64,000 bases of DNA from NCBI GenBank assembly GCA_030280995.1, contig JASXTE010000017.1, positions 18,742,498-18,806,497 of the forward strand. The letters are read 5' to 3'. This DNA comes from Hemileia vastatrix (lineage: Eukaryota; Basidiomycota; Pucciniomycetes; Pucciniales; Zaghouaniaceae). The notes under the pieces were generated by a model. It made no database searches and was not told the DNA's origin. It saw only the letters and a list, made by a program, of their open reading frames with translations. Below are positions 13,914 through 46,498 of this stretch, piece by piece (position 1 is the stretch's first letter; every line of letters begins with the position of its first letter). The position numbers were made by a program, and so were the translations under genes.

Positions 13914-13933
13914 CATTATTTTTTATTGTTTTT

Positions 13934-22970: not shown

Positions 22971-23192
22971 CATAATTGTAACTAGTATTTTTGATTAGAT
23001 TGTTTGGTTTTTAGATTTTCGTCAAGAGGACGTAATAAAGCCGGCACTTCAGCGGAAGAGTCGTAGGGTCTACAACAAGTGGATCAATAAGCCGTTATCA
23101 GAAGATAGCGTAGGGCTGCATCGTGAATATAGTCAGGTTTAATTACCAAGTGTGTGCTTTTGTGATCTCTGTTTCGATTTTATATTTCGGGA

Positions 23193-23801: not shown

Positions 23802-23871
23802 AAGAAGTAAAAATGGCGGTGTAAGCTTAAATTAAGTTGCGTTGAGTTGAGAGTCGCACAGTAGGGTTGCT

Positions 23872-27200: not shown

Positions 27201-27202
27201 AG

Positions 27203-27943
27203 TTGGAGTTATGTGGAGTAGCGAAGATTCTTAAGAAGCTACAAGGGATGCTTTGGGGGCAGCATTTTGAGCTGCAGGTTGATGCGCTATTGTTGGTACA
27301 AATGATTAGTAGCCCGAGTTTACCAGATGCGCCCATGACAAGGTGGGTAGCACAGATTAATTTGTTTTCTTTTGATTTAGTCCATAAACCGGGAAAATTG
27401 TTCACTATGCCGGATTCATTGTCAAGAAGACCGCTGTGTGAAGAAGACTCGGAAGTGGAGGAATTGGAAGAAGATAAGAAATGGGTAAATGGGATAGATT
27501 ATTGTTATGAAAGATTTAACAGTAACGTCCGCAATGAAAATAAACTAGCAGGCAGTATTGTCCGTGATGACAATAAACTAGTAATGTGGAAGGTCTGTAA
27601 AGACATAAAAATGGATATTGATGATGATGTTTGTAGCAAGGGTAGTCTGCAACTGGATTTAGGGGACGCTGAAGCTAATGTAGCGACAAGAAGTGCACAA
27701 GGCAAAGTAGTGGAAGAGTCAGATGATGAAGATGATTCAAGGGGAAGTCTAGACAGTAGTACTCATCTCGAAGAAGGGGAGTATTCTGAAGATGACACAT
27801 CTACTGATGAAGGAGTAGAGTTTTTAAGGTTATATTTGGAAGGTAGTAGTCGAAAAGATTTTTGCAATAAAAAGGGTTGGTGCAACATTAAGAAGCGTGC
27901 TAAAGCTTATATTATTAAAAATAGGAAGTTATGGAAGAATTGA
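27203..27943 (+). pseudogene. Element C RNase H C-terminus and acidic linker
   Basis: Continues RNase H in the shifted frame: LELCGVAKILKKL, then VDALLLVQMI, MTRWVAQINLFSFDLVHKPG and MPDSLSRRP, the usual end of Ty3 RNase H. A roughly 160-residue acidic, variable linker leads to integrase. In the linker DNA two copies of the hairpin motif lie back to back (27527-27579), encoding VRNENKLAG and VRDDNKLVM. A TGA at 27941-27943 ends the frame, which reopens immediately. Confidence 0.82.
27527..27580 (+). repeat. Two copies of the covarying hairpin motif (element C)
   Basis: The second copy has stem TATTGTC/GACAATA (27556-27562 with 27569-27575, seven pairs) around CGTGAT, with AACTA completing the ATAAACT tail. 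The first, at 27527-27546, has the loop CGCAAT and tail ATAAACT but only a weak stem. Confidence 0.65.
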
Positions 27944-29100
27944 GCTTTGTCCCCTCAGTTAGTTTTTCAAACTAGGGAAGGGAAGGAGAAGATACTCAGG
28001 GAGTTATATGAGAATTTAGGACATAGAGGTAAAGATGAGACGTATGGCAGAGTTAGGGAAAGATTCTGGTGGCCCAATATGAAAAATGAAGTAAGAGATT
28101 GGGTTAAATCTTGTCCTGAATTCAAGTGCAGGATTTACAGAAAGCCAAAAGAGAAAGGAAGAGCAACAGGCAAAGATACTGTTTTTGGTAGGGTCAGTTT
28201 AGATGCAGTTCATATAAAAGAAGGACACTTTAAATACTTGGTAGTAGCCAGGGATGATCTATCAGGATGGATTGAAGCAGTGCCATTGGTAAATCTCAAG
28301 GCAAGTAATGTAGCTGAATTTTTGAAGAAAGAATGGATTTACAGGTATGGGGTAATGAAGATGGTAACCATAGATGGTGGCACTGAATTTGCTGGAGAAT
28401 TCCAAGAGTTAGTAAAAGGTATTGGCGCAAAGTTACAAGTTGCAACACCATATTATCCTGAAGCAGAGGGAATGGTAGAAAGAGGGCATCAAGTTATAAA
28501 AGATGCGCTAGTTAAAATATGTGGAAATAGCGGGGCAAAATGGAAGAACTATTTGCCATTAGTTTTGTTTGCGGACAGGATTTTAGTTAAAAGGACAACA
28601 GGGTTTTCACTGTATGAACTGATGTTTGGTCAAAGGGAAATATATTACCTATTGATCTGGAGGCTGGATCATTTCTATGATGTGACTGGGATCAAGTGCG
28701 CTCTACTGAAGATTTAATTCTAGCGAGGGTAGCGCAGCTTGAAAGAAAGGACAAGTTTGTGGAGAAGGCATATGATAGAATGATGCAGATCCGTGACAAG
28801 TCAGTTAAATATTGGGATGAGCATTTAGCGCATAGGTTAAGGAAGCCATTGAACCCAGGAGATTTGGTTTTGGTTTATAATAGAAGTTTAGAAAGCCAAT
28901 TGGGCAATATGTTTTCTGACAGATGGAACGGTCCATATAGGATAAGAAAGCAGATAACTGGAGGGTCTTATTTACCGGAGGAATTGGATGGTACTGAGTG
29001 GAAGCAATGTGTGGCTGCAGATCAGATCAAAAGATTCTACCCAAGGGGTGTTCCAGTGATACAAGATAACCTCCGGAATGAGGAAAAACTACCAGAATAA
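27944..29100 (+). pseudogene. Element C integrase
   Basis: The zinc region reads LYENLGHRG...SCPEFKCR. One His and the second Cys of the HHCC motif are replaced (Tyr and Phe). The DDE core is visible: Asp in SLDAVHIKEG, Asp in TIDGGTEFAG, Glu in EAEGMVERGHQV. A frameshift near 28640 moves to the 28696 frame, which holds the C-terminal module with DLVLVYNRSLESQ, DRWNGPYRIRKQ and GGSYLPEELDG. The frame ends in LRNEEKLPE at a TAA (29098-29100), right on a copy of the hairpin motif. Integrase would insert the DNA copy and make the 5-bp duplication. Confidence 0.88.
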
Positions 29101-29647: not shown

Positions 29648-30735
29648 CTATTCAGTATCAGAGTGAAAGCTAATAGGATATCCTTTCCAGTCTTTAGGCA
29701 TGACAAAGCAACGGGCATTGGCGGGGAATCCAAGAATAGTTGATGAGCTGATTTTGTTCTTTAGCTGACCTATCATTTCTATATGGGTATAGCAAGCTTC
29801 ATGTTCAGTGTCAGAAAAAGCTGGTGCATTAGAGTAGGATAGAGACATAGCGTCATATATAAGACGAAGTCTGGAAAACATTTGCATGGAATGGACGAAG
29901 GGTAAAGGAATAGGAACCCATCCCAGGGAGATGGATTCATTGAAGCCTGAAAAAGAGTCAGCGGGTAAAGGAAGCATAAGTATAATAAAGGATACTTACT
30001 TGCTAATAAGTTTTGTGTGCGCGCTGATGGCAAAGTAATGGTAACCGCGTCAGGAGCAGCTGCAGTGGAGCCTGAGCGCATAGAAGCATTAGAGCTTGGA
30101 GTGGAAGAAGGTGTAGCGCTAGGCTGAATAGATATTTCGCACCTGGGAAAACTAGGAAGGAATGGAGATTCATAAGGAACATTATTATTAGTGGAAATAG
30201 TGGGAGTAGTGGTTGTAGCTATGGGAGCGCTACTAGTAGAGCTAGGTGGAAAGCGGATATAACCAGCAGGAAGAGGAGTATTCTGGTTTAAAGAGATGTT
30301 GCAAGTTTTGCGGTATCTAAAGCAATTGTCACAGGCAGGTCTAAAGGAGGCATACCCCCAAGGTTATGAAATGTACAATGGAAGTTGCGGCGTTTACAAA
30401 ACAAGCACGCTTGATCTTTTGGGACGGTACGATATTGAGTCATAATATTTGGATGAAAGAGATCTAGGTTATTAGAAGGGTTATTTATAAGATAACATGG
30501 CATTGTAGAGAAGTCACCATTGCGCCATGTTTGACTTGAGCGCCAGATGGTTTCTAAGAAGATAGGGAAAAGTTTTTGTCATAATGAAGGACCCAAGGAA
30601 AGGCAAATCTGTTTCAGTCAAGGGAAAGTCATATATTGCGAAGATCTGAAGATTACAAGAGAGCGCATGCATCTTTGATGCAGGGGAAGTATTTGCTGCT
30701 ATAGAAAGTAGCAACAATCTCAAGCATTTAGTAGA
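29648..30735 (-). pseudogene. Element C antisense gene 2: Zn(II)2Cys6-like protein
   Basis: Read on the minus strand. An N-terminal part (from about 30720) leads through SSQTWRNGDFSTMPCYL to DQACLFCKRRNFHC. After one frame change in a run of five Cs on the plus strand (30355-30359) it continues to PACDNCFRYRKTC. The spacing is C-x2-C-x6-C-x14-C-x2-C-x6-C, the pattern of fungal binuclear zinc-cluster DNA-binding domains. A Ser/Thr/Pro-rich stretch follows, then a GTAAGT...TTTCAG intron (29947-29999, 53 nt) and a last exon to TAG at 29648. At least one upstream frame change near 30580 is also needed. Element D has a homologue in the same place and orientation. A regulator of the element or of host genes is inference; some basic residues typical of the family are present. 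Confidence 0.65.
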
Positions 30736-30900
30736 AGGGTGCTGCTTAGAAATCAGATGATAATTTCTGAAGGCAACTCATCTCGCAGTTGTAGAATTTT
30801 CACAGGAAAATTAAGGGAACATAAAATAATAATATTAAAGTCTTTTTTTTTACAAGATAATATACAATTTACAGGTACTATATACAAGGAAGTTTTTTTT

Positions 30901-31946
30901 TTAGTATTCTGCGTCCTCAAAGATTGGAACGCAGAAAGCCCAGTATAAAACAGCCTCTTGCATGTATTGCTGCAAGGTGGTGACTAGCTGTTTTCTTTTG
31001 TCATACTCAGCGTGAGTATAGACCAGGACCGCCTCGAGAAATTTTTCGATGGCGACTATCATATTGTTCATACAACGCATGATTTCATTGTATGGTGCGC
31101 AGGCAACATGCTCTGCAAATTCCCAGTTTTGAGCCGCGGAGGGCTCTTCATCATTGGTGACCGGAGTAGTTTCGACGGGCCATTCGTCCAGGATGATCGT
31201 ATCAAAGACTGGCTGAATAATTGTCCAGTCAGGGATGGGTGTACGAGGAGTACACTCCGGAATATGAGCGGTATCCCAGAAGGGATCTTCTTCCAAGGCT
31301 GGAAGGAATAGAGGAACGTTTGGTGGTGGAGGCGTTTCAGCATAAGGTGTGCCTGGCCCATTCTGATAAAAAAAAAAAAAGGGGGGAAACGTTAGGATTA
31401 AGAAAGGAAGAAGTAGGAAAAGAAGACTTACGGTACTCTCCTCTGAAAAGAGAGATCTTGGGACAGAAGCAATGCTACTGGGTGTAGGTTTGCGGTAACC
31501 AACCTTGGTTTGTTTGTTACCAGGTGGGGTAACAGGAGCAGGCACCGGGCACTTGATGGTCATTTGACGCATCATGTTAGTAGTGGAGGCGTTAGGGTCC
31601 AGGCATGCAACGGTGGGTTGCTTATCGTAACTACACTTCTTTTTGCGAGTCTTGCAGTAATCACATGACTAAAACAAAAAAAAGGGAAAGAAAAGAAAGG
31701 TTAGTAACAACAAGGAAGGAAGGTGAAGATGACTTACAGTGAAGAAATTATTGCCACGACTGGTTTTTGAGAAATGACAAGGAGTTATGCCATTTCGATA
31801 CAGTGGGTGCTTCTTTTCCCACCCATCAGTGTAGTTACAGGGGCTGTTGATGAAGCAGCAGGGGGCTGAGTGCGCACGAACTGTCGAATTGCGTCCACGA
31901 CGTTGGCGGTAGTTTCAGTGGTAGGATTGGTACTTCTAGTATTCAT
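30901..31946 (-). pseudogene. Element C antisense gene 1: three-exon Cys-rich protein
   Basis: ATG at 31946 (minus), exons 31946-31738, 31668-31432 and 31362-30901, with two 69-nt GTAAGT...AG introns. Exon 1 needs one frame change around 31840-31860. Exon 2 opens with SCDYCKTRKKKCSY, a C-x2-C-x6-C half-cluster with basic residues as in Gal4-type factors, but no second half-cluster is evident. Exon 3 is acidic and proline-rich, then helical (FAEHVACAPYNEIMRCMNNM), ending DAEY. A CATAAATA box on the minus strand near 32024-32031, about 80 nt upstream and next to the 3' LTR, could be its promoter. Conserved splice sites suggest a real gene. Function is unknown. Confidence 0.6.
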
Positions 31947-32049
31947 TATATATAAAAAAAAAGGATGACAAATAAAAAGAGAAGAAGATGGAAGATGGAG
32001 GAAGAAAACGATGCAAGACGCAGGTATTTATGGGCTCCTGGGGACAGTT

Positions 32050-32065
32050 GCTAGTAGAGGGAGGA
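32050..32065 (+). promoter_or_regulatory. Element C polypurine tract
   Basis: AGTAGAGGGAGGA abuts the 3' LTR start TGTGG at 32066. Confidence 0.78.
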
Positions 32066-33299
32066 TGTGGTATGCGCCTCTCAGGTAGCATAATTTTAGA
32101 CCAATCAGTGTGCGTAATACAGGAAGAACAAAGGAAGTTAGCCCAGTAGGAAGTGCTAAAATATAATATGTATTTGTGTGTTTCAAAGAACAAAGGAAAT
32201 GGAAGCGCAGAAAAGGATTAAGGGTCTGTGCCCTCGAATTTTTGTAGCGAGATGTGCCGCACAATGGGGAGTTGTGTGTTATTGATCTATGACAGTAAAG
32301 CGCTAAACAATATGGATTTGGACTTTACAATAATTATGTGTTACACATTAAGAAAAGAGATATGACTTGAGGACAATTCAAGTGCATAGTATACTGTACC
32401 GCGGCTAGTTGGGTAACTTACTGAAACAGGTAAAGAGGGAGGCTAACTAGTTAAGCAAATTATCAAGACTATGAACCTAGCATTAAAGAAAAGAGAGTGG
32501 GAACTCGATCGCAAAACTACCCAAGAGTCAAGGCGGCTAGGTTCAGTGTTAGAGTAGGTCAAAACTGAAAATAGCGATGAAACAAAAAATAAAAGGTAGA
32601 GTCAAAAACGCATATGTGGAGTATGAGTGAAACAAGTTAATACTAGCGTTAGTAATCATAGGGTATGTTTTAGGTGCCATAGTTGTTACAAGCGGTGTAC
32701 TTAGTTACTAATAAATTAGCTATTGTTTTACTAATATGGCGCTAGAGCCAGTGCTGAAGATCCACAAGCAAACTGTGTCTTGAGTACTGGAAAAATATAA
32801 AAGGGAGGACTATTTGATAGAGAAGGAGAGTAATATATATATATAGAGAGAGAAGAGAAATATATATATATAAGTAATATAGAATAGCGAATTAAAGATA
32901 TTTTATGAGTCTTTTACCATTCGTGCGTCTGTGTGTGTATTTCATATAGTATAGTGAAAGAGCGCAACATAGAGAGAATATATAGATTTAGTAGGAGTAG
33001 CTATTATTAGAGTTATTTTATTGCTATAATAAGGCATATTCAAAGAGAGCGCTTCAAGAGGGAGTAGCTGTAAATATTAGCGCTTATTAAGAATAGAAAT
33101 ATCCAGATAGTAATACTTGTTTTCCTGATCTCTAAGACTCATCTCTCATCTTTTAAACTTTCTAATCAAATATTAGTGGTACACATTATTGCGCTGTCTT
33201 TAGAAATAAGAGTGGCAGGTTCTTCTTTTTAGAAATTGAAAAGGAGAACCAACCCATCTCTCATTGTGTCTACTGCTTAGTACTTTAGAACAGTCTACA
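32066..33299 (+). repeat. Element C 3' LTR
   Basis: TGTGGTATGCGCC to CAGTCTACA, 1234 bp, pairing with 21705-22951. The microsatellite at about 32828-32880 differs in repeat number. Several GCGC sites of the 5' LTR have become GTGT or GCCC here. Confidence 0.9.
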
Positions 33300-33303
33300 C
33301 CAT

Positions 33304-34406
33304 TGTGGCATTTTGAATCTTAGTATGGCTCTAAAAGTCTATTTGGAATGTTTATTGGGAATAGTACGGTGATCAGAAAAGCCAGATTAATTCAAAATAT
33401 TTTATTATTAAACAAAAATGAAGTTGAAAAAGTCAAGAAATGAATATTTGGACAGATTTATTAATTTTACAGGTCATATGATCTTTTACAGCTGCAAAAT
33501 TAAATTTAATGAAAGTCAAGAAGCTCAAGAACCTTTGGGAGTTTTTCCTGAACTTTTATTATTTTTCCTATATTTTTAATTGATTTTAAAAGATTTATTA
33601 AATTATTTATGTTTTTCAATAATTGCTTAACTTTGATGATTTTTAACAGGGTGAATAGAGCTGCGCAGACTACAAAAAATAGTTAGGAATGTTAAAAAGA
33701 GGTAGCTCTATCATTCTTAAATTTTCTAGATTTTTTATTATAGATTTAAGGTTCTAATTGAGTCTGGAGGTCCAGAAAAGTTCTGTACAAACTTCGTATG
33801 AGCTCCAGACAAACTCCAGACGAGCTTGGGAAGAGCTCTGGTTGTGCTCCAGAGGGAAAAAGGCCACGTGACTGGATATTATGCATATAAGGATGTAGAC
33901 TTGAAATTAGATAGGAAGGGGGACGCAATAGGGAACAGATTATAACAACCATTATTCATATTTTTCTTTTGTCAACAAAATAATTAATTATTTATCATAC
34001 CCTTACAAAATAACAATTTTACATAACACTTTAAATATTTTACTCAACAACTGTTAAAAATTAACATACAGGGTATCATTAGAAAGGTCTCAACTCCAGG
34101 GACTCATTTATAGTATCTGCTCTAAAAAATTATTAAAATCTAAAAACATTAAAACTTCATTCTTTAAAATATTTTATCTGGTGTAACTTTATTGTTGCAT
34201 TTCAGTTTTTTTGCACAGAAGAACAACTCAATCATCCTAACAAGCATTAATTAGACAGGGTTTCATTCTTTATTATTATCAATTAGAATTTTAAGCTTAT
34301 TGATCTAAAAAACTTACAAATCTATTTAGAGGGACAGGGTTTTCTCTGATTATCCAACTCCTTCAGATTCTGCTTACAGAAAGGCAACTGTAAGAGTCTA
34401 CCTACA
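33304..34406 (+). repeat. Element D 5' LTR
   Basis: TGTGGCATTTTG to CTACCTACA, 1103 bp. A TATA-like CATATAAGG lies near 33884. A cluster of CTCCAGA/AGCTCTGG palindromic units sits at about 33765-33860; the 3' LTR has one more unit. Confidence 0.88.
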
Positions 34407-34411
34407 TATTT

Positions 34412-34427
34412 TGGCGCCCAACTTGGG
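34412..34427 (+). promoter_or_regulatory. Element D primer-binding site
   Basis: TGGCGCCCAACTTGGG begins five bases after the LTR end, the usual place for tRNA-primed minus-strand synthesis. Confidence 0.75.
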
Positions 34428-34580
34428 ATTTGATTTCTCTAGACTTTAAAAGAAATTACTTGATACTTGGACTTTTAGCCTTCAAGAGGCTTTTTTTTTG
34501 GAACTCTTATTGATTTTATTATTTAGCCTGCAAGAGGATTGCTTATTTTAACGGTTTAAACGCTTACTTATGCTTTTAGG

Positions 34581-35777
34581 ATGTCTTCTGCTTCTGGATC
34601 TGGTTTGTCTCTTCCTATGATACCATCAGTTAGGATTGTTTCTTGGGTTGGGCCAAAGTTTTCTGAAAATTATTTAATGGGATTTTTACATAGGTATGAA
34701 ACTGCAGCTGCGATTGATGGTGCTTTACCTTTGGATACGGTTAAGCAGATTAGGTTCTTTATTGTGGAATGAGAGGTGGAAAAGGAGGTTATTTCTATAA
34801 ATGGTTATAAAGATCAAGATTGGGGAAAGCTGACGATGAATATGGAAAAAAGGTGGCCAAAGGATTATTCATTGGAGGATCTGAAGGATATAGCTAGGAA
34901 ATGAAAATCAAAAGGTGGTGTAGAATCTCTGGGTCAGTATCATTAGTTTATGGTTGAATTCCAGGCAGTTCTGGATTATTTGTTGGAGTATGAAATTTTA
35001 TTTCATGATAATGCAGCAAAGCATGTTTATTGGGGTGCTATGGGGGAAAAGGTTACGAAAGATGTTTTGATGGTGCTTATTAAAGCAAATTTAATAAAGG
35101 ATCTCCCAGATGGAGAAAATAAGATTCCTGGTATGGAGGTGCTAAAGAAGGTTATTTTGGAACATCTGGATACTCATAACTCTGTTGATCTGGACTCTGG
35201 AGAAGACACTGTGGTTGCTCAAGAGATAGAAGAGGATGGTGTAAAAGAACTAGTTTCTGTTGAAATTTTGGCTTCAGCCATTCCTGAAGATTTTGTTCAG
35301 CCTGAAGATATTTTTTTTGTTGACTATTCTGTTGGGAAAGAAGAGGTTTCTGAAGATGAAGATATTATTGTCACTGATGATGAAACTTTGGATGATGGGG
35401 ATAATTTTTTGTTGGATGATACGGAATCAGATTTAGAGGAATATTTACGTCAGGCTTTTTCTTCAAAAGCAAAGACTGTCTGCTATTCAGATGTGGATAT
35501 GGTTTATGAATCTGGTATATGTATGGTGGATTTGTTTCAATCTCAGGAAGAGATTTTTATGGAGGATATGGTTTTCCCTGCACCAATAGAGAGTGTAGTG
35601 CCATTGAATAATAGGGTGCATAAAGTGGATGCACTCATATTTTGGAAAAAGTTAGTTTATTTTTTATGTCAATTTGTAGGACAAATTCCGAGGATTTATT
35701 TTTGGGGTTTATGGAATCGGTGGATAAGCCCTTGGGGCAAAATTATGGGTTATCTCCTGGGGATATTAAGAATTTAA
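34581..35777 (+). pseudogene. Element D gag, no zinc knuckle or protease
   Basis: ATG at 34581. One frame continues to 35777 through three in-frame stops (TGA 34770, TGA 34902, TAG about 34945). The N-terminus (SVRIVSWVGPKFSENYLMGFLHRYETAAAIDG, then DTVKQIRFFI) matches the gag starts of C and F. The capsid part reaches GMEVLKKVILEHLDTHNS. Where C and F carry a zinc knuckle and protease, D has only an acidic stretch (IIVTDDETLDDGDNFLLDD) and a hydrophobic tail. D therefore seems to have lost protease and nucleic-acid binding, or its gag was rearranged. Confidence 0.78.
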
Positions 35778-35962
35778 TTCCTCCAAAATGAGGATAAACT
35801 ACCTAAAATTGGCTTAAATTTTCTTTTGTTATAATTTCTTCAATTTATACAGGATTCAAATTATTATGGAAACCCTCATTTTTTGGGGTAGCTGGGGCTG
35901 ATCACTCTAATGTTGCAATCTCTCCCCAGGATGAGATCACAGATTGCAATAGGTCAGTTCAC
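35778..35962 (+). promoter_or_regulatory. Element D gag-pol spacer: hairpin motif plus conserved stem-loop
   Basis: CCTC-CAAAAT-GAGG then ATAAACT (35780-35800) follows the gag stop. At 35913-35949, TTGCAATC pairs with GATTGCAA (eight pairs), enclosing TCTC/GAGA (35921-35924 with 35933-35936) and a TCACA bulge. Element F has a matching structure at 62557-62596 with a different but still complementary outer stem, and element C a weaker one. Confidence 0.65.
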
Positions 35963-37624
35963 ATGGAGATAATTCAAGTGGATTATCAATTATTTTCTGT
36001 TAATAATACGTTAAATTGTTATTATGTCTTCAAATTTTTGGTTTGTCTCACTTCTCTGTCAAGTTTTTCAATTACGTTCAAGAATGGATCAAGAGGGAAG
36101 ATGGGAAATATTATGTTGAATAAAAATTGGAATGGTTTATTTTCTGACCTCCAGCAAGAGGGTAAAATGCAATTATTTCATCAAAATTATATAAAAAATC
36201 TTAGTATAAATAAAACACTAGAAAATAATTTTTGTGATAATTCAATTCCGGTCCTCCAGCAAGAGGATAACCTGCCAGATTTTTTTACGGGTGATTTTAT
36301 GATGGATAAGGGAATTAAAGGTGTTGGAAAAGTTGTTGATAAACTAGACAAAGGAAAAGAGAGAAAGGTTAAATTTAATAAAAATATACAATATTATTCT
36401 ACTTATTTTGACTCTGATTCTGACAATGAAGAACACTCTATCAATAAAATTTTTAACGGCAATACAAAAATAAATATTTTACCTCAAGCTTATGTATATG
36501 TGGAGGCAGAAAAACATAAGAAGGTAGAAAACAAAATCGGACCAATTAATGAACCGCTACCCGCTGAATTAAATCCACCTTTGAGAAGACAAAGGCTAAA
36601 AAGAGATCTATATGAATGTCCCTTGGTGATGAATCTGCCTGAATTTTCTGAAACGTCAAGAATCACTTTTGATAGATTAGGTGTTGTTAATTTTGGACCT
36701 GATGGTTGGTTGTATGGAGAAGAGAGAAAGTTGTTGTTGGATGTGATGGTCAAGGGAGAGAAGGCCATTGCTTTTGTGGAAGAGGAAAGAAGTGTGTTGA
36801 AGCATTCCTATGGGGAGCCTTACAAGATTCCTGTAGTATGTCATGAACCATGGCAGCAAAAACCAATCCCAATTCCGGCTGCATTAAAAGAAGCTTATAT
36901 CAAAGTTATCAGAGAACAGATTTGCACTGGACTGTATGAGAAATCATCATCAAGTTATTCTAGTCCAGTATTTTGTGTCAAGAAACCAAATGGCAAACTT
37001 AGAGTAGTTCATGAACCTAGGGGATTAAATAGGGTAACAATAAAGGATGCTGGTATACCACCTAGTGCTGAGAAGTTTGTGGAAGCGTTTTCAGGGAGAG
37101 TGTGTTATGGTTTAAGAGATATTATGGGGGGATATGATGAGATAGAGTTGCATCCAGACTCTAGGACTCTCACTACTTTTGATACACCGCTAGGACAATT
37201 AAAATTGACAAGATTACCTCAAGGAGCAACAAATTTAGTTGCCATTTATCAAGCTCAGATGGCTTGGATTCTTCAAGATGAAATTCCTCAATATGCTGTA
37301 TTCTTTATTGACAATGGAGGAATTAAAGGACCTTCAACAGGTTATGATAATGAAGTATTGGAGGAGAACCCAGGGATACAAAGATTCATCTGGGAGTATG
37401 CAATTATGTTAGAGAGGATCTTGTTTAGAATTGAAGAAGCTGGTTTAACTATTTTGGGTTCAAAATTTTCATGTTGTGTGCCAGCTTTAGAGATTTTAGG
37501 TCATGTGGTATGTAGAGAGGGTAGAATTATGCCCAAGAAAAAAGTGAATAAAATTCAGTCCTGGCCAAGACCCAAGAATACGACCAATGTTAGGGGGTTT
37601 TTAGGCATATGTGTTTATGTTTAA
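35963..37624 (+). pseudogene. Element D reverse transcriptase with conserved leader
   Basis: The first 60 residues (MEIIQVDYQ..., then a hydrophobic stretch ending SSFSITF) match a frame at the same place in F (62610). Two hairpin-motif copies at 36148 and 36253 encode LQQEGKM and LQQEDNL. RT motifs: SSPVFCVKKPNGKLRVVHE, CYGLRDIMGGYDEI, LPQGATNLVAIYQAQM and FIDNGGIKGP. The second Asp of FIDD is Asn (AAT at 37323-37325), a one-base change expected to abolish polymerisation. A TAA at 37622 ends the frame, which continues beyond it. Confidence 0.87.
36148..36274 (+). repeat. Two hairpin-motif copies in element D pol leader
   Basis: CCTC-CAGCAA-GAGG then GTAAAAT (36148-36168), and TCCTC/GAGGA around CAGCAA then TAACCTG (36252-36274). 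Confidence 0.7.
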
Positions 37625-38594
37625 ATTTTAATCAAGGACTTTTCTTCATTGGAGGCTCCGTTTAGAAAGTTAACGAGAAAGGATGCAGACTGGGAGTGGT
37701 ATGAAGAATATGTGAAGGCGTTTGAGAGGTTGAAGAAGGTTGTGGGAAAAGATATTGTCCTGCACAAGTTAGATTATGGAAAAGATGCTGGTAGGATTTA
37801 TTTAGCAGTTGACTCAAGTCAGATTGCTGCTGGGGCGGTCTTGTCTCAAATGGATAAAGCTGGTTACATTATGCCAGTTAGGTATGAATCTGTGGTATTC
37901 ACCAAAGTCAAATCAAGATATTCTCAGCCAGCGTGGAACTGTGTGGAGTGGCAAAAATTTAAAGAAACTTCAAAATGTTTTGTGGGGCAAACAATTCAAA
38001 TTGAAAGTGGATGCAAAATCTTTAATTCAAATGATTAATTCCCCAAGTTTACCAAATGCACCTATGACTAGATGGGTAGCATTCATTCAAAATTTTTCTT
38101 TTGATTTAGTTCACAAGCCTGGAAAAACTTTTACTATGCCAGATGGTTTGTCAAGAAGACCACCCACTGAAGATAATTCAGACTCAGAAGAGTTCAATGA
38201 AGATATACCTATGATTAAAGCCAGCACTAAAGGAGCTGAAGACTTTCCATACCTCCCCTATGAGGTTAAACTGGCAGGACTTTTGTGTATAGATGATTTT
38301 GATGAAGACCTCCACCAAGAGGATAAACTGGAAAATTATTATTATGTTGATAAAATTGATGAAATTGGTGTAAATAAATTTTGTAAAAAAGAGGTAGAAG
38401 AAGATGAAAGTCTATATGTGGATGAGAATTATGTGATAGTATGGGATGGTAGTATATTGGTTAGTGGTGTATATGTTGAAAGTTTAGAAAATTTGGTAAA
38501 GCAGAGGTTGGAAGATGATGATGAAGAAGGAGATACTAAAAATGGTGGTAAAGAGGTTGATAAAAATTTGGTTCAAAAGAGATTTGAAGTTTAA
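37625..38594 (+). pseudogene. Element D RNase H and acidic linker
   Basis: Continues pol in the same frame to 38038: connection region, then AVDSSQIAAGAVLSQMDKAG with the first RNase H Asp. A frameshift near 37980 moves reading to the frame ending at 38594, which holds LKVDAKSLIQMI, MTRWVAFIQNFSFDLVHKPG and MPDGLSRRP. The linker after it is acidic and carries two hairpin motifs (38251 and 38309), encoding LPYEVKLAG and LHQEDKLEN. Confidence 0.82.
38251..38331 (+). repeat. Two hairpin-motif copies in element D linker
   Basis: ACCTC/GAGGT around CCCTAT then TAAACTGG (38251-38274), and CCTC/GAGG around CACCAA then ATAAACTGG (38309-38331). Confidence 0.75.
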
Positions 38595-38651
38595 AAATTT
38601 AAAGATGAAAATTTTCATTCGTTTATCGATCAAACTCAATCAAAGAATCTT

Positions 38652-40039
38652 ATGGCTCATGCAAATGCAGGTGATATAGGTGATAGGGAAGTGCCCTTGG
38701 ATGTTATTTTATTGAATTTTAAAGATGAGGTCTGGGAACAGACTGAGTTTTATTATGTTTTGGTAAAATATTTGTTGACTCTGAAAAGGCCAGAGGAATT
38801 TGATGATGATGACTGGAAGGCTATCAAAAGGAAGACCCCAGAATTTTATATATCTGGACAAAGATTGATGAAAAGGAGGTTTCCAAATCCTCAAGTAGTA
38901 GTTTCTCAAAATAAAGGGCAAGAGTTGGTTATGAAAGCACTGCATGAAGATCTTGGTCATAGGGGAATGAGCGAGACATATAGAAGAATTACTGATAGAT
39001 TTTGGTAGCCTGGTATGAAGATGGCTGTTAAGAAATGGGCTCAGTCATGTGAAGAATTTCAAAGAAGGATTTATCTAAGGCCAAAATTACCTGGACAGGC
39101 AACCGGTGAAAACACTCTTTTTGGTGGGGTTAGTTTGGATGCTGTTCATATAAAAGAGGGGATATATAAATATTTAATTGTAGCCAGAGATGATTTATCT
39201 GGTTGGGTAGAGGCAGCGCCTATTATTAATTTAAATTCCAAAAATTTGTCAGATTTCTTGTTATGGATTGGGTGTATAGATATGGGGTTATGAAATTGGT
39301 AATGGTTGATGGAGGACCTGAATTTGGGGCAGAATTTAGGGAAGCTATATCAAAGGTTGGATCAAATGTTAGGGTAGCAACCCCTTATTATCCTGAAGCT
39401 GAAGGAATGGTTGAGGGAGGGAATCAAGTTATAAAGGATGCATTAGTTAAAATGTGTGGAGCTAGTGCTGAAAAATGGAGGCACTATTTACCCTTAGTAT
39501 TATTTGCTGACAGAATCACTGCCAAAAGGACAACTGGATATTTACCCTACAAACTAGTTTTCGGACAAAAATCAGTTTTACCAGTTGATTTGGAAGCTGA
39601 ATCATATCTTGGAGTAGATTGGGACATAGTCAAGACTACTGAAGAGTTATTATGTGCAAGAATGATGCAGCTGAAGAAGAAAGAAGAATTCTTAGAAAAG
39701 GCATATTCTAGTATGATGAAAATCAGAAATCAGTCAGTAAGGTATTGGGATGAAAGATTAGCACACAGGCTCAGGAAACCTTTGAAGACTGGAGATATGG
39801 TTTTGGTGTATAATATAATTTTTGAAAGCCAGTGGGGGAAGATGTTTGCAGATAGGTGGAATGGACCGTATAAAGTCAGAGAACAGGTGTCTGGCGGTTC
39901 ATATGTTTTGGAAGAATTGGATGGAGTAGTTTTAAAGAAGAGGGTAGCGGCCAATCAAGTCAAACGGTTCTATCCTAGGGGCACCCGGAGTGCTGAAAGT
40001 TTACTCTGCAATGAGGATAAACTAAACAAAATAAAATAA
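38652..40039 (+). pseudogene. Element D integrase
   Basis: The zinc region reads ALHEDLGHRG then SCEEFQRR: both His and the first Cys are kept, but the second Cys is Phe, as in element C. A TAG at 39006 follows DRFW. The DDE core shows SLDAVHIKEG (Asp), VDGGPEFG (Asp) and EAEGMVEGGNQ (Glu). A frameshift near 39260 leads into the 39263 frame. The C-terminal module has DMVLVYNIIFESQ, DRWNGPYKVREQ and GGSYVLEELDG. The frame ends near a hairpin motif encoding LCNEDKL. Confidence 0.87.
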
Positions 40040-40184
40040 AATAATTCATTATCAAGTTTAACTCCGAAAATGAGGGTAAACTATTTCTAAAATTGTTTGA
40101 AGGTGAAACTTCGAAAGGAGAATAAACTACATAATCGATTAAATAAAATTTTGTCAAAGCTTAACTCCGGAATGAGGATAAACT
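40003..40184 (+). repeat. Four hairpin-motif copies after element D pol
   Basis: At 40004 (CTC-TGCAAT-GAG), 40062 (CTC-CGAAAAT-GAG, seven-base loop), 40107 (CTTC-GAAA-GGAG, short loop, one G-T pair) and 40165 (CTC-CGGAAT-GAG), each followed within four bases by TAAACT. They form a loose tandem series with spacing of 45-60 nt. Confidence 0.7.
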
Positions 40185-41297
40185 ACTTTCTTATTTACAA
40201 ATATTACTGTCATTTTACTATGGTATGGGAGACAAAACCGTTAACAAAATCTTACAACATTTATGAAGACAATTTTTTGAAAATTCTTAAAACTCTTAAA
40301 AGCTATAAAAATTAAGGAGAAGATCTATGTCGGAATGATAAATTTTTTTGGTAGAAGCGTTCACAGGGGAACCTTCTGAATTAAATATTGGCAGTTTTGG
40401 GGGTAATTGATGGGCTGGCTGCTCTATACACAATTACCTCACAATGTTCATTATTAATTTTTCCCTGTTTCTAGTTGAACCCTGGCTTTGCTTTTGATCT
40501 ATAAGAAGTCCGCTAAGACTATAAACTGGAACGTACAAAGAGACAATTCTCCCACTGCCAGATTCAAGATTCTTTTTTATTTTTATTTTTGTTATTTCTT
40601 TTATGTTAGATTTTTATATAATGAAATATATTTTTCTTTCATTTTAATTTTATAATACTATAAAATATTGTTAAGGGTGATTCTCACTGGTGGTCTTTAA
40701 TCATTTTTACAAATTGGAGGGAGCCCACCCAGTGATCATTATCATAAATTTTTATTTTTCTAAGTTTTCATTTATTAATTTTGTATTTTAAATTTCTCAA
40801 AATTGTGTAACCAGATCAAGTTGCACTTGGATGTAGGTATGATGTTGAGGATATGGCTCATCAATTGGCCAGGGGGCATCTTTTAAATTTTAAAATTTTA
40901 CATTTCATAAATTTTATATTTCAAATTTTTTTATCATTCTTTTTTAAAAAAAATTAAATTTAAAAAATTTTTTCATATCAATCTTTTATAAACTTTTATT
41001 ATTTTCATCATTTTTTAAAAAAAAAAACAAATAAAAAATAAATATATAAATAAAATAATAAAATAAAATAAAATAAAATAAAAAATAAGAAAAATAAAAT
41101 AAAATTTAAAATTAGAGTAGTTTTTTAATGTATACTTCTTTTTTATGTTTCATTTTATATTCCATTCAGGATGGCTAGTTAACCAGAAATAATCAAATTT
41201 AAGAAGAATTATCCTTGGAAGAAGCTCTATCTGAAGAATTTGGAGCTGATTTGACAGTTATCCAGAAAGCTGAATTGATTTGTTGGTATTGGGAAAT
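40185..41297 (+). other. Element D spacer, AT-rich
   Basis: No gene seen. Contains T-rich stretches and a degenerate AAAAT/AAATA tandem tract around 41015-41100. It separates pol from the antisense gene. Confidence 0.5.
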
Positions 41298-43480
41298 TCA
41301 AAGCCAGTTGGCTATTTTTAGTTGATCCCTCAAAATTTTCTCTCTGAACCATACCTCAGTTTGATCAGAAGGATGATAATGATGAAAATAAGTTAAAATA
41401 TTATTGAAATTAGGTAAAAGGTGATGTCCAACTAGATGAATAGGGACCTGGGGATAACTAGGACCAGGTAAAGGAAGCTCATACGCTGATGAATGAATGG
41501 GTGAAGCATTGGACACTGGAATTATGGAGCAAGAGTCAAGTTTATAAATATGATCTAATCAAGATAAAAGGGATACTAACTGCTATCAACATAGTCAAGA
41601 TCAAGCCTAAAAGTCTTACTGGGAATAGGAATTGGTGTTTTTAGAGATGTGAAAGGGTTGATAATTTTTGAAGGAGGTTTGGAATTTGAGCTGGGTCTTT
41701 TAGAGGATTTTTTGGAGGTAGGAGAAGAAGGAAGGCTGTTGGTTCTAGATCTTTTGGGCTTGTTAATTATAATGGGTCTAGGAGAATGGATAGAATATGA
41801 AGAGGAAATATCCAATAACAGTTTAATAAAAGGAGTTTTTCTCATGGCTCTTGGAGAAATTGGAGTCCAGGGAGGATTAGAAGCAAGCCTAGATTGAAGA
41901 GAAGGAGCAGCTGGACCCAGTGTGTTTTGGGCAGGAGAGAAGTTTAGATAGGCAGAAGGGATAAATGGAGTTGGATTGTTGGAAGTAGAAGTAATAGGAG
42001 GAGGAGTTGATTTTTTTAGAATGGGATTACAGAAGGAGGCAAAAGAGGTAGCAGGAATTGGCAGGGAACCATATTTGAAGCTGGAGCATTTTCATTTCTT
42101 AATGAAGCTGGCAGAACAAGCTCTGTTATAGGTGTCAGTGTATTTAGTATATAAGTATGATTTAATAGTATTTATTAATGGTCCTACTATTTAGTGATAA
42201 ATTATATAGTGATTAAACCTCAGGGGAAGACTAATAAAATAGTTATACCCAAATAAAACTCACAATACTTGGATTTAAATGCGTGCTAGTGGTGGAAAAA
42301 AGGTAAATAGAATATAGTTATAGCTTATATAATGATAATATAAATTTATAATGGCTTTATAATATACTTCTAAATGATAATAATTGTGCTATAATGTTTA
42401 TTTAAATTTTAGTAAGTAAGTGATGTCCAATAACCGCCAAAATCCTCCCTTACTTATACAAAAATCCACTGGAGTGCACAGATCATCAATCCAGATGATG
42501 TCACTGCTATCCCCGGCAATTACAGCACTTTGAGGGCCCATAACCTCCCCATGGCGTCCACTTCTAGAAGATTCAACACCTAGACCTCCAGTAAGGACCC
42601 TCCATCACAATTAATGATAACGCAGACCCATACCATAATTAGAAAATCCAGATAAAAGTGCATACCATAAGGAAACAGGTAAAATAACTAATCCGAAAGG
42701 AATAAAATGAAACCCAAAGCATATAAAGGAGACAAATTAAATGTCCAAGCCACCAATAGCATTCCCAAGCATCCATATTAACCCAGTAATCATATCCCAA
42801 CCCATAAAGCCGTGAAAATCCATCCAAGGAAGCAGATTAAGTTGTCCAAACTGGATATATGCGCCTGAAATAGGTGTATATGCTTGTGTAGGCATTGTGA
42901 GTCCACTGGATACGTCCATATGACCTAAAATAAGCATAAAAACAAAGGTTATAGGCTATTAAGAGGCTAAAATCCACTTATAGACCTAAATATACATAAT
43001 ATACTGCATATTTCACTGAATATGAGATTTATGTATACATATAAGCTTATGTATGTCAATAATTACTTAATATCACTTAAGATAAGTATATTATGACTCC
43101 ATTAACACCTTAATAAGTATTATTAGGTTATGGATAAGCTATTTAAACTACTATAGTTTATATAATAGTGTAATAATTATATATATATGTAATATAATCA
43201 TATATATTATTGTTTTAACCTTATATTTAAAATATAAGCTTAATATGCTTAAGGTTATATTATTTTAAGTATAAGAAATACTCAGTCCTAGAGATATCTA
43301 GGCTGAAAATAGGTGTGTTTCTTAGGTTTGAAGGTATAAACACATTCCTGATGGGTGAAACAGCATTAATTGCAAGCTTGATCAGGAGAAGCAACATAGC
43401 TGGATGGAGTCATCTTGATAGGATTAAAAAGTTGTATGGAAATGCTAGATAATGGCCTGAAAATTGGGAGAAAAGGAACT
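41298..43480 (-). pseudogene. Element D antisense gene: Zn(II)2Cys6-like protein, split by a solo LTR
   Basis: Homologue of element C antisense gene 2. On the minus strand, MTPSSYVASPDQAC followed by a stop and CCFTHQEC aligns with TQYRTVPKDQACLFCKRRNFHC (C-x2-C-x6-C). After the family B LTR is set aside, RACSASFIKK, a stop and KC align with PACDNCFRYRKTC; the second Cys has become Ser. Fourteen residues separate the two halves, exactly as in C. Then come a Pro/Ser/Lys-rich region (41845-41620), a possible GTAAGA...CCAG intron (41516-41619) and a last exon ending TGA at 41298. That exon resembles C's last exon (YPQVPIHLVGHHL against GWVPIPLPFVHSM). The two elements are well diverged elsewhere, so the gene predates their split. 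Confidence 0.62.
42133..43308 (-). mobile_element. Solo LTR, family B, inverted copy (TSD ATAGG)
   Basis: Reverse-complement match to 18388-19564 along its whole length (1176 against 1177 bp). ATAGG flanks both sides (42128-42132 and 43309-43313). It lies inside element D's antisense gene between the two zinc half-clusters, so it arrived after D. Confidence 0.88.
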
Positions 43481-43536
43481 GGTGGAAAGATATGGACTCT
43501 GGATGGAAAAAGGTGTTGGAATCGATCAAAAGTTTT

Positions 43537-43770
43537 GTCCACCATGACCTTAAACTGGAAAGTTTATCATTCTTTGGTCCCCTATGACCCTAAACTGGAA
43601 AATCACTCATTATTTATCCTCTATCCCATTAAACTAGCAATTCAATGGTTATTGGGACAATTTGAAAGGGATTTACAAGATGGGTCCCCCATGACCATAA
43701 ACTGGTATATTCTATGCAATTCTATGCACTCATTTAAATTTATCACTTTCCACCAAGACATCTAAACTGG
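43537..43770 (+). repeat. Hairpin-motif cluster with GTC/GAC stems (element D)
   Basis: GTC-CACCAT-GAC (43537-43548), GGTC-CCCTAT-GACC (43576-43589), GGTC-CCCCAT-GACC (43683-43696) and a weak TTC-CACCAA-GAC (43748), each followed closely by TAAACTGG. A further degenerate copy lies at about 43618. Relative to the CCTC/GAGG copies, both stem strands changed together. Confidence 0.78.
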
Positions 43771-44632
43771 TAATGCAAAATTTTTTGATGAAGGCTATTC
43801 AATTAACAATCAACAAATTATTTAATTTGTTACCGGTACTCAAATTTTAAAAAGAGGCATATGTTTAATTTGGAAAATGAAGTGGATAATATTGTGGAGG
43901 TGATGGATGATGAATGATAATTATGGTGCTAAAAATGGTGAAAATATGGTGATTATTATTATTTAAAAGATGAGTTATTAAAGGTGGTCTATTTGAATGT
44001 TGTGATGATAAAATTTTTGAAGGAGGATATGGTAGTTGGAAAAGTAGTATGCCTAGAATAGGATAAATGGTATGAAGCTTGGAGGACCTTATGGTGAGAA
44101 TTGGATCAAGTATTCGGCTCAATCAAAGAGAATGGAATCAGGAGTATTTGGATCATTTGATGAGAATGGAATCAAGTATTCAGCTCAGTAGGTGTGGAGC
44201 CTACACTCTTAATGCATATGAGTAGAGAATTGTATAGGGTAGTCTGAAGGGATTAAAACCTTGCTCTCAGTAGTTGGAAGCATCACAAGGCAAATAGATT
44301 TTATTTCAAAATGAAAAATTATGAAGAAATCAATTTAAAATAATTTAATATGAAGAAAAGATCAGCATTCATTTTTACTAAAGTACTAAACTATGAGATT
44401 AAAACAAATAATTTTGCTGAAATTTTTCTACATCATCATCAAAACTCTCAATCAACAATCTTCTCTTCATTAAATCTTCATGATTATTGGCAAGAGTGTC
44501 TTGGAAGTAGAAATAAGTTTATGTAGTTGGAGTGGGATGTTGAAGAAATGATGAAGAGATAAATATGGTGAAAATAAAAGTAGGATTATATATTGATCAA
44601 ACTTGAAAAATTCAAAGAATGAGGAAATTCAT
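43771..44632. other. Element D pre-LTR spacer
   Basis: No convincing gene. An 85-codon minus-strand frame (43865-44122) shows no recognisable motif, and the counterpart of element C antisense gene 1 was looked for here and not found. Confidence 0.5.
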
Positions 44633-44643: not shown

Positions 44644-45219
44644 TGTGGCATTTTGAATCTTAGTACGACTCTAAAAGTCTATTTTGAATGTTTATTGGGA
44701 ATAGTACGGTGATCGGTTTAAAATATTTTATTATTAAACAAAAATGAAGTTGACAAAGTCAAGAAATAAATATTTGGTCGGATTTATCAATTTCACAAGT
44801 CATATGATCTTTTACGGCAGCAAAATTAAATTTAATGAAAGTCAAGAAGCTCAAGAACCTTGGGGAATATTTCCTTAATTTTTACTATTTTTCATATATT
44901 TTTAATTGATTTTAAAAGATTTATTAAATTATTTACGTTTTTCAATAATTGCTTAATTTTGATGATTTTTTACAGGGTGAATAGAGCTGCGCAGACTACA
45001 AAAAATAGTTAGGAATGTTAAAGAGAAGTAGCTCTATCTTTTGTTCTTTTTTTAGATTTTTTATTATAGATTTAAGGTTCTAATTGAGTCCGGAGGTCCT
45101 GAAAAGCTCTGTACAAACTCCGGACGAGCTCCGGAAAAGCTCCATTCAAACTCCAGACGAGCTCTGGAAGAGCTCTGGTTGCGCTCCAGAGGGAAAATAG
45201 GCACATGACTGGATATTAT
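44644..45219 (+). repeat. Element D 3' LTR, left part
   Basis: Matches 33304 onward. It stops at ATTAT (45215-45219), where the copia element is inserted. The palindromic CTCCGGA/AGCTCC cluster (about 45088-45190) has an extra unit compared with the 5' LTR. Confidence 0.88.
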
Positions 45220-45906
45220 TGTTAGAATTGACGCAATGACTTTTCCTCCCTTTTTGTCTTCTCACCTTTTGTCACTTAGTAATTACACTCCTATTAGCAA
45301 TTCCTGCATAACTGTCCCTTGTATTTACACCCATCACGAAAATGTTTAGTAATAGCTTTTTCTGATAGATCACGCATTTGAGCGTATCTACTTTTCCCTG
45401 CTTACCACATTAATTAGAAATTAATCAACCCACTACATGTAACTAATCATCGCACCTGCAGTAGACATTGGTCTCTTGAGGTTAAATAGGGTCTATCGAC
45501 TACTATCTTTCCTCAGTTAACCAACGACTCCTGCAGGTGTGTATTTCTTATCTTTCTCTCCTCCTTCCCGTTATTTACTATCCTCTATCTCATGATCCTT
45601 AGGTATTTACTGCTTCGTACTCCCTTGAGCTCATTCACCTGCTTACTTGGGATTACTATTGCTGCCCTAAGGTACTTTTTACACTTTCCTTGTCTTATCC
45701 TATACAAACTGTCTAGTCCACTTGCAATATAACAGTTAACCAACGACTCCTGCAGGTATTTACTGCTTCATACTCCCTTGAGCTCATCCACCTGCTTACT
45801 TGGGATTACTATTGCTTCCCTAAGGTATTTACTGCTTCGTACTCCCTTGAGCTCATCCACCTGCTTACTTGGGATTACTATTGCTGCCCTAAGTCCTTGT
45901 CTTACA
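45220..45906 (+). repeat. Copia 5' LTR with internal 69-bp repeats
   Basis: Contains a 69-bp unit three times (45602-45670, 45755-45823, 45824-45892; the last two directly adjacent), beginning GGTATTTACTGCTTC. A shorter repeat, CAGTTAACCAACGACTCC, occurs twice. Confidence 0.92.
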
Positions 45907-45919
45907 GATTATGAGACCG
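45904..45919 (+). promoter_or_regulatory. Copia primer-binding site, tRNA-Met anticodon-arm type
   Basis: ACAGATTATGAGACCG spans the LTR edge. Its complement reads CGGTCTCATAATCTGT, which looks like the anticodon arm of a methionine tRNA (CAT anticodon). Several copia-class elements prime from an internal tRNA fragment instead of the CCA end. The match is from memory of tRNA-Met structure, not a search. Confidence 0.55.
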
Positions 45920-45973
45920 GTTGTGTACATTACTTTATTCCAGTCAATTGTTTTTCACTATCTCTACTCAATC

Positions 45974-46498
45974 ATGCAGAACTCCGACGTAAACCTTACT
46001 GGTGTTCCCGTCCTAGACAAGGACAACTATCAACTGTGGGCATTCCGAATGGAGAGCATATTCATGCAACAAAACCTCTATGATATTGTCATCAACAACG
46101 CTAAAACTCCCTCTGAGTCTGACCCAGATCACTCTCCGTTTAAATTACGCAAACAAAAAGCGACTGGCCTCATGACCCAGTTCATGAACCCTTACCATCT
46201 CATACTTTTTGTGACCGTTGCAAATAAAAATGACCCTCACCAACTATGGTCTGATCTTGAGTCCCATTATAAATCCTCGAGTGAAAATAACCAAATGCAA
46301 GTCTTTCAAAAATTTGCCCTAGTCTCCTACCCAGGAGACATTAATAAATATATTGAACTCATAAAAAAAATCGAAGCTGAATTAGTCGCCGTTAAAATTG
46401 AATTAAAGGAACACTTACTAGCCTCATACTTCCTTTATCGACTCCCCAAGGAATTCTCTTCACTTCGAGATGCTCTTCTCCATAATGCCCAAGCTTGA
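45974..46498 (+). CDS. Copia gag
   Basis: The likely start is the ATG at 45974 (MQNSDVNLTGVPVLDKDNYQ), which gives the usual copia gag opening, with DNYQLWAFRMESIF near residue 16; the frame is also open upstream to an ATG at 45911. The UBN2/gag-like core continues to YFLYRLPKEFSSLRDAL. A TGA at 46496-46498 follows ...HNAQA, where copia gags commonly have Trp, so TGG to TGA is likely. The frame continues on the far side. Gag forms the particle shell. Confidence 0.85.
   Translation: MQNSDVNLTGVPVLDKDNYQLWAFRMESIFMQQNLYDIVINNAKTPSESDPDHSPFKLRKQKATGLMTQFMNPYHLILFVTVANKNDPHQLWSDLESHYKSSSENNQMQVFQKFALVSYPGDINKYIELIKKIEAELVAVKIELKEHLLASYFLYRLPKEFSSLRDALLHNAQA

What the first reader, a model, noticed from the sequence alone, without database searches (positions are those of the whole stretch)
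29648..43480. Antisense Zn(II)2Cys6-like gene carried between pol and 3' LTR in two diverged retrotransposons
Elements C (29648-30735) and D (41298-43480) encode, opposite to gag-pol, a protein with C-x2-C-x6-C-x14-C-x2-C-x6-C. The x14 gap is identical in both although the proteins are otherwise diverged and damaged. Fungal binuclear zinc clusters are sequence-specific transcription factors. A retrotransposon lineage carrying its own such regulator on the antisense strand would be an unusual mobile-element system, formally like antisense regulatory genes of some retroviruses. Presence in both elements argues for an old, selected cargo.
Basis: partly seen in the sequence, partly recalled or inferred. 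Interest (0 to 1): 0.87.

Follow-up and report, generated by a model that had tools for sequence, protein, structure and literature searches.

The report
Retrotransposons carrying two antisense zinc-cluster genes
A large family of jumping genes in a rust-like fungus carries, on the reverse strand, two small genes for proteins resembling fungal DNA-binding switches, and its ends carry repeated short DNA words of the kind such switches recognise, so the element may regulate itself.

Summary
The antisense gene is real, and there are two. Each has an N-terminal C-x2-C-x6/7-C-x12/14-C-x2-C-x6-C cluster. Both window copies are broken: C has a 1-nt frameshift inside the x14 spacer; D has stops, a Cys-to-Ser change, a 1,173-bp insertion and a mostly deleted gene 2. 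Relatives are intact: in a young family 'E', 150 of 150 listed matches to gene 2 exon 1 are 98-100% identical without a stop. Families D and E, diverged beyond dS 1, show dN/dS of 0.05-0.25, against 0.08 for integrase. E gene 2 passes Pfam's Zn_clus cut-off; gene 1 does not. The basic half-cluster comes second, opposite to GAL4. D and E LTRs carry an 11-bp array of CCG/CGG units just upstream of CACGTG and a TATA-like box. Element C is studded with GCGC (63 sites, about five times expectation). Best reading: an element-encoded DNA-binding pair acting on its own LTR; binding and expression are not shown. Antisense extra genes are known; my searches found no zinc-cluster pair with matched arrays.

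The parts
21705..22951 (+). 5' LTR of element C (begins TGTGG)
   Evidence: 93.2% identical to 32066-33299
32066..33299 (+). 3' LTR of element C
   Evidence: purine tract 32054-32065 directly before it (read)
23166..29100 (+). gag-pol region of element C in broken frames (protease, RT, RNase H, integrase)
   Evidence: Pfam on seven C pieces, (protease match below its curated cut-off)
29648..30503 (-). antisense gene 1 of C; exon 1 30503-30000, exon 2 29946-29648; 1-nt frameshift between the half-clusters
29947..29999 (-). predicted intron of gene 1 (53 nt)
   Evidence: GT...CTGAC...CAG in most C-type copies listed
30375..30407 (-). first half-cluster C-x2-C-x6-C of gene 1, C
30301..30333 (-). 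second half-cluster C-x2-C-x6-C of gene 1, C
   Evidence: 150 genomic matches, the cap
32023..32033 (-). TATA-like CCATAAATACC upstream of gene 2
   Evidence: CCATAAATA[AC]C in 27 of 31 C-type loci
22391..22406 (.). two GCGC sites 12 bp apart, 42-57 bp upstream of the LTR TATAAAAG (22448)
   Evidence: of 12 copies with that TATA found, both sites in 5, one in 5, none in 2
33304..34406 (+). 5' LTR of element D
44644..51307 (+). 3' LTR of element D, split by a copia element at 45220-50777
41298..43413 (-). antisense gene 1 of D, broken; second half-cluster 42118-42086, C-terminal exon 41516-41298
42136..43308 (.). 1,173-bp insertion in gene 1 of D, flanked by 8-bp repeats ATAGGTGT
44402..44509 (-). 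gene 2 remnant of D (C-terminal tail; N-terminus deleted)
   Evidence: 78% over 36 aa to E gene 2
45118..45175 (+). 11-bp array, unit CTCCGGACGAG, in D 3' LTR; decayed counterpart about 33782-33865 in the 5' LTR just before CACGTG and TATAAG (33886)
43533..43770 (+). about 40-bp repeat units, TTTGGTCCACCATGACC.TAAACTGG, upstream of gene 1 of D
   Evidence: TRF 43533-43615, further units read; array also in E
40018..40184 (+). units like CTCC..AATGAGGATAAACT at the end of pol in D
   Evidence: word listing (not found by TRF); a 46-47-bp array in E

Best explanation
A lineage of Ty3-like LTR retrotransposons in a rust-like fungus carries two antisense genes with predicted introns between pol and the 3' LTR. 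SHOWN by sequence: two conserved antisense frames under purifying selection between families, six-cysteine clusters, intron-like gaps with splice ends, family-specific short-motif arrays just upstream of the LTR TATA-like box. INFERRED: both proteins fold as Zn2Cys6-like DNA-binding domains; antisense transcription starts in the short stretch between the purine tract and gene 2; the proteins enter the nucleus, bind the element's own arrays (CCG/CGG units in D/E, GCGC in C) and set LTR transcription or counter silencing. Antisense placement would also explain why introns persist: splicing of an antisense transcript leaves the sense genomic RNA, the transposition template, uncut.
For: Copies. 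Intact pair in E. D-versus-E dN/dS: g2 N 0.24 (3 copies), g2 C 0.05 (8), g1 N 0.25 (11), g1 C 0.10 (10); other frames hold stops and mostly pN/pS near or above 1; integrase 0.08, one comparison. C lineage at depth 0.22-0.45, five copies. Private versus shared changes in C-type copies, N:S 311:80 against 131:78 (stratified odds ratio 1.75, p 0.006). Zn_clus 23.2 bits over the cut-off of 21 for E gene 2; weak PPR1 match, E 0.0075. 11-bp arrays; 3,412 exact genomic hits of a 21-mer from the array, 0 for the reversed control. GCGC: 63 in C, 469 against 102 expected in 20 C-type loci, coding pieces 26 against a codon-shuffle mean of 10.4, maximum 19 of 500.
Against: No binding, expression or transcription-start data. 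Gene 1 below the Pfam cut-off; a C-type gene 2 exon 2 piece (L044) had no Pfam match at all. Both AlphaFold models are poor (pLDDT 57.3 and 53.5); the gene 1 model matches no zinc-cluster protein among the 50 of 66 rows shown. The link between protein and array is by position and by the known taste of the family for CGG (recalled), not tested. Within near C-type copies dN/dS does not single out the frame of gene 1. The minus-1 frame also gives low pN/pS, 0.45-0.65, as codon-phase mirroring would. Between the two E loci, gene 2 N-part has dN 0.032 and dS 0.020 (few changes). The private/shared contrast is weak for transitions alone (p 0.08).
Confidence: 0.6

Rival explanations
1. The antisense proteins are nuclear accessory factors of another kind (integration targeting, nuclear import or nucleic-acid chaperone), and the LTR arrays are enhancers for host transcription factors that the element recruits.
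For: Arrays of host sites in LTRs are common (recalled). CACGTG lies next to the array in D and E. No test links protein and array.
Against: Array core differs between lineages that also differ in the proteins (C: GCGC; D/E: CCG/CGG); GCGC also pervades coding sequence in all three codon phases taken together, odd for an enhancer.
Confidence: 0.25
2. Antisense RNA, not protein, is the functional product (double-stranded RNA control of the element).
For: Antisense promoters with possible RNA roles are known in other elements (review PMC7264820, parts 1 and 2 of 3 of the text read).
Against: Purifying selection on the amino-acid sequence between families; frames kept.
Confidence: 0.07
3. A captured host gene carried as a passenger without benefit to the element.
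For: Introns argue for capture from genomic DNA (inference); plant elements capture genes (PMC7264820).
Against: Both genes found in C, D and E lineages, and gene 2 exon 1 intact in 150 of 150 listed near-identical E matches; selection.
Confidence: 0.06

Closest known systems
[quoted passage not shown]
   Same: Position, orientation, retention across a lineage; gene23 has its own promoter and a nuclear product; Retand TRP28 predicted to bind DNA (PMC7264820 parts 1-2 of 3 read; PMC11963269 passages)
   Different: Other protein domains; no zinc cluster named in what I read; here two genes with predicted introns
Boty brtn (antisense gene in Botrytis Ty3 elements)
   Same: Fungal Ty3 element with an antisense extra gene (cited in PMC7264820; PMC8365987 and PMC4227169 passages; the original 2011 paper was not seen)
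   Different: Protein class of brtn unknown to me; Boty pol has a chromodomain (PMC4227169 passage), none matched in the seven C pieces scanned
GAL4-type Zn2Cys6 transcription factors (PF00172)
   Same: Six Cys in two halves; CDLCRVKKVKC close to GAL4 CDICRLKKLKC; CCG/CGG units as candidate targets (family taste recalled)
   Different: Basic half second instead of first; linker 12-14; encoded by a retrotransposon
VANDAL/VANC anti-silencing system of Arabidopsis
   Same: Element-encoded DNA-binding protein with targets that often form tandem repeats varying between related elements (PMC5735166, abstract and section headings seen)
   Different: VANDALs are DNA transposons and the protein is unrelated (recalled); binding was shown there, not here
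Antisense gene of HTLV (HBZ, name recalled)
   Same: Antisense promoter inside the 3' LTR (review PMC7264820); regulatory role (recalled)
   Different: bZIP-type protein of a retrovirus (recalled), not homologous

Membership tests
Zn2Cys6 binuclear cluster (PF00172) | Pfam score over the curated cut-off | tested here: inconclusive
   Met by E gene 2 (23.2 bits against 21). Not met by gene 1 (12.9 in E, 16.1 in a C-type copy) nor by window C gene 2 (16 bits); L044 gene 2 piece no match
Zn2Cys6 binuclear cluster (PF00172) | Six Cys with spacing C-x2-C-x6-C-x5..12-C-x2-C-x6..8-C (range recalled) | tested here: inconclusive
   Gene 2 of E (2 loci) and of D (1 of 3 stretches complete): x12, inside the range; gene 1: x14, and C-type gene 2: x7 and x14, outside
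Zn2Cys6 binuclear cluster (PF00172) | Basic recognition half comes first | tested here: not met
   Profile positions 1-15 align to the second half-cluster in E gene 1 and gene 2; in a C-type gene 1 the match spans both halves in the usual order (31-72 to 1-34), where both halves are basic. So 'works like' rather than plain member
Zn2Cys6 binuclear cluster (PF00172) | Fold: two short helix-loop halves around two zinc ions | tested here: inconclusive
   E gene 2 model: helices 11-16 and 34-39 after each C-x2-C but pLDDT 53.5; 9 of 9 Foldseek matches are zinc-cluster domains, best E 0.92; gene 1 model none in 50 rows shown
Zn2Cys6 binuclear cluster (PF00172) | Binds zinc and CGG-type triplets | not testable with these tools
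   Needs protein work
Antisense extra gene between pol and 3' LTR (aORF-3R) | Antisense frame in this place in most copies of a lineage | tested here: met
   Copies. Gene 2 then gene 1 in order in 20 of 20 C-type loci (L035 with only a gene 1 fragment); integrase match in 19 of these 20 (place not printed); LTR-gene 2-gene 1-pol in both E loci. Share of all copies not counted
Antisense extra gene between pol and 3' LTR (aORF-3R) | Antisense transcription from its own promoter | not testable with these tools
   Only a TATA-like box in 27 of 31 C-type loci
VANC-like anti-silencing system | Element protein binds its repeated motifs and lowers DNA methylation | not testable with these tools
   Only the anatomy is alike
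Ty3/gypsy (Metaviridae) element | Order protease-RT-RNase H-integrase between LTRs | tested here: met
   Element C, Pfam (protease below its curated cut-off), LTRs

The most novel reading that the evidence does not exclude
A self-contained regulatory or anti-silencing circuit inside an LTR retrotransposon: a pair of antisense-encoded, half-swapped zinc-cluster proteins that recognise family-specific site arrays (11-bp CCG/CGG units in D/E, pervasive GCGC in C), protein and sites diverging together between lineages, as in VANDAL/VANC but in a fungal retroelement.
Probability: 0.35. Interest if true: 0.92.

Novelty: new variant of a known kind. Interest (0 to 1): 0.76.

Why it matters
The role of antisense extra genes in LTR retrotransposons is an open question in the review read here (PMC7264820). 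This lineage offers a recognisable candidate DNA-binding domain, many intact copies and candidate target sites, so protein-site binding can be tested directly in vitro. If true, a fungal element carries its own transcription switch or anti-silencing factor, which could help explain how it multiplied in this 748-Mb genome.

Tried and rejected
Protein database searches with C-type gene 1 and gene 2 gave no relative; a viral-contig scan with gene 2 gave none. The third search, with D pol (120 of 169 hits listed), has unnamed metagenome proteins on top (63-68% identity over nearly all of the query in the first ten); among hits with an organism name the nearest are Austropuccinia psidii, Puccinia striiformis, Cronartium and Phenoliferia, with mushrooms further down and one mislabelled-looking bacterial bin. 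So the host is probably a rust or near kin; no name is available. AlphaFold models were too poor to carry weight. hhalign finds C and D/E gene 1 N-halves related (E 2.9e-5, probability 47.8%) but no homology between their C-terminal halves, and only weak support (E about 0.005) for gene 1 and gene 2 being paralogues, so tandem duplication is not claimed. Pairwise dN/dS within C-type copies (0.46-0.70) was set aside because other frames give similar values for gene 1; for gene 2 the true frame is the lowest of six in exons 1, 2 and 3, but by little. A count of the genome's own PF00172 genes was not obtained. Literature searches for zinc-cluster or fungal antisense cases (2 of 2, 20 of 171, 10 of 104 and 10 of 94 papers listed) showed none in the titles and abstract beginnings.
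Full report
WHERE IT IS. The best hits of D pol are unnamed metagenome proteins; among hits with an organism name the nearest are Austropuccinia psidii, Puccinia striiformis, Cronartium quercuum and Phenoliferia, so the host is most likely a rust or near kin. Element C has LTRs 21705-22951 and 32066-33299 (93.2% identical); element D has 33304-34406 and a 3' LTR split by a copia element. C shows protease (weak), RT, RNase H and integrase in this order.

Antisense frames with half-clusters are there, but neither window copy has the pattern in one frame. In C, 41 nt separate the third and fourth Cys codons; in D there are stops, a Cys-to-Ser change and a 1,173-bp insertion with an 8-bp flanking repeat. 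In relatives the pattern C-x2-C-x6-C-x14-C-x2-C-x6-C is in one open frame: C-type, D-type and E-type copies. Of 31 C-type rows, 28 are complete over the six positions and 22 of these keep all six Cys.

TWO GENES. Upstream of gene 1, next to the 3' LTR, a second antisense gene runs 31946-30898 in C. Its C-type cluster reads C-x2-C-x7-C-x14-C-x2-C-x6-C across an intron; the six Cys are kept in 29/30, 26/30, 22/29, 22/23, 23/27 and 27/28 rows. In E it is C-x2-C-x6-C-x12-C-x2-C-x6-C in one exon (L065, L066), and the one complete D-type stretch of three fetched reads the same (L069). D in the window keeps only the tail (44509-44402). Order in C and E: LTR, gene 2, gene 1, end of pol. Gaps with GT...AG ends and a branch-like CTAAC or CTGAC recur at the same three places in most C-type copies, the two in gene 2 varying in length by their T-runs; some copies have lost a splice dinucleotide.

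COPY NUMBER. E is therefore a recent expansion with this exon intact; the two E loci compared, L065 and L066, are 94.5% identical over 6.1 kb.

SELECTION. Between D and E: dN/dS 0.24 for gene 2 N-part (3 copies), 0.05 for its C-part (8), 0.25 for gene 1 N-part (11) and 0.10 for its C-part (10); the true frame has no stop in E, other frames carry stops and mostly pN/pS near or above 1, except the minus-1 frame at 0.45-0.65. dS is near saturation, so values are rough. Integrase of window D against L065 gives 0.08. In the C lineage, five distant copies give 0.22-0.32 for gene 2 exon 2 and 0.34-0.45 for exon 3, against 0.65 and 0.62 for near copies. In two-state columns of C-type rows, changes private to one copy are N:S 311:80 and changes shared by two or more are 131:78; split by type, p is 0.08 for transitions and 0.016 for transversions, combined odds ratio 1.75, p 0.006. 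Against: within near C-type copies the frame of gene 1 exon 1 is not singled out (0.92 against 0.58-0.86 in other frames), nor that of exon 2 (0.71 against 0.50-1.30), as expected if most differences arose after insertion; what marks the frame there is openness, 0.29 stops per row against 6-21 for exon 1. Between the two E loci gene 2 N-part has dN 0.032, dS 0.020.

WHAT THE PROTEINS ARE. E gene 2 passes Pfam's Zn_clus cut-off (23.2 against 21 bits), with profile positions 1-15 on the second half-cluster CDLCRVKKVKC; E gene 1 (12.9 bits, also on the second half) and a C-type gene 1 (16.1, spanning both halves) fall short. Among solved structures the best match of E gene 2 is PPR1 (E 0.0075), then GAL4, again on the second half. 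So in D/E the basic half stands second, the reverse of GAL4. AlphaFold models are poor. Foldseek matches of the gene 2 model are nine of nine zinc-cluster domains but none significant (best E 0.92); the gene 1 model finds none in the 50 of 66 rows shown. hhalign ties C gene 1 to D/E gene 1 (E 2.9e-5, probability 47.8%); the C-terminal halves of C and D/E show no homology.

SITE ARRAYS. L066 (E) holds an 11-bp array TCCGTACGGAC, 8.4 units, about LTR offset 443-535, followed by CACGTG (581) and a weak TATA-like TACTTAAG (595); L065 has a variant. D has an array at the corresponding place, CTCCGGACGAG, 5.3 units (3' LTR); in the 5' LTR its CCGG cores are gone, mostly as TG or CA, and CACGTG and TATAAG (33886) follow. 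The 21-mer CTCCGTACGGACTCCGTACGG occurs 3,412 times in the genome (several per array counted apart), its reversed control 0 times. On contig C2 below 23.56 Mb, the part that one search lists, 4 of the 8 gene 2 places have such a site within 1.2 kb (lists compared by eye). Two further kinds of unit are shared by D and E: about 40 bp (upstream of gene 1) and the CTCC..ATGAGGATAAACT units at the end of pol, a 46-47-bp array in E but in D found only as separate words. C instead carries GCGC: 63 sites, z about 20 over a dinucleotide model, 469 against 102 expected in 20 C-type loci, 0-2 in seven D-type loci, 7 and 5 against about 3 expected in the two E loci. In coding pieces 26 are seen against a codon-shuffle mean of 10.4 (maximum 19 of 500), while five control words are not raised. 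Gene 2 of C itself shows no excess (2 against 1.9). Two GCGC sites 12 bp apart lie just upstream of the LTR TATAAAAG; of 12 copies with that box found, 5 keep both, 5 one, 2 none. GCGC sites have lost their CpG less often than other CpGs (26% against 37% TG/CA), a modest difference.

HOW IT LIKELY WORKS. Shown: conserved antisense coding pair, clusters, intron-like gaps, arrays upstream of LTR TATA-like boxes. Inferred: an antisense transcript starts between the purine tract and gene 2 (TATA-like CCATAAATA[AC]C in 27 of 31 C-type loci); the proteins bind the element's arrays and tune LTR transcription or resist silencing. Antisense coding keeps introns safe from splicing of the sense genomic RNA (established logic of retrotransposition; inference here).

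KNOWN KIN. [quoted passage not shown] PMC11963269, PMC8365987 and PMC4227169, passages). VANC of Arabidopsis gives the closest working model (PMC5735166, abstract and section headings). A paper on rust transposons (PMC12210899) had none of my six terms in its main text. That I found no zinc-cluster pair in print rests on the listings only, most of them capped.

Noticed in passing
45220-50777: A copia element with 99% identical LTRs sits inside the 3' LTR of D, close to its TATA region.
   Followed up: partly
6033-14744: Element A, Ty3 with a chromodomain and 98.5% identical LTRs, has only about 35 bp between the last pol frame and the 3' LTR and so no room for antisense genes there.
   Followed up: partly
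42136-43308: 1,173-bp insertion with 8-bp flanking repeats ATAGGTGT; no clear terminal inverted repeat.
   Followed up: partly
29071-29123 and 63120: Relic units of the CTCC..ATGAGGATAAACT motif at the end of C pol (29071 read by eye) and near the window's end; in E the pol frame ends in residues LRNEDKL encoded by such a unit.
   Followed up: partly
45597-45906 and 50468-50777: Short tandem duplications of 69 bp in the copia LTRs.
   Followed up: no
18000-21704: CpG observed/expected is only 0.13 in flanking DNA against 0.52-0.78 in parts of C, suggesting strong CpG decay in this genome.
   Followed up: partly
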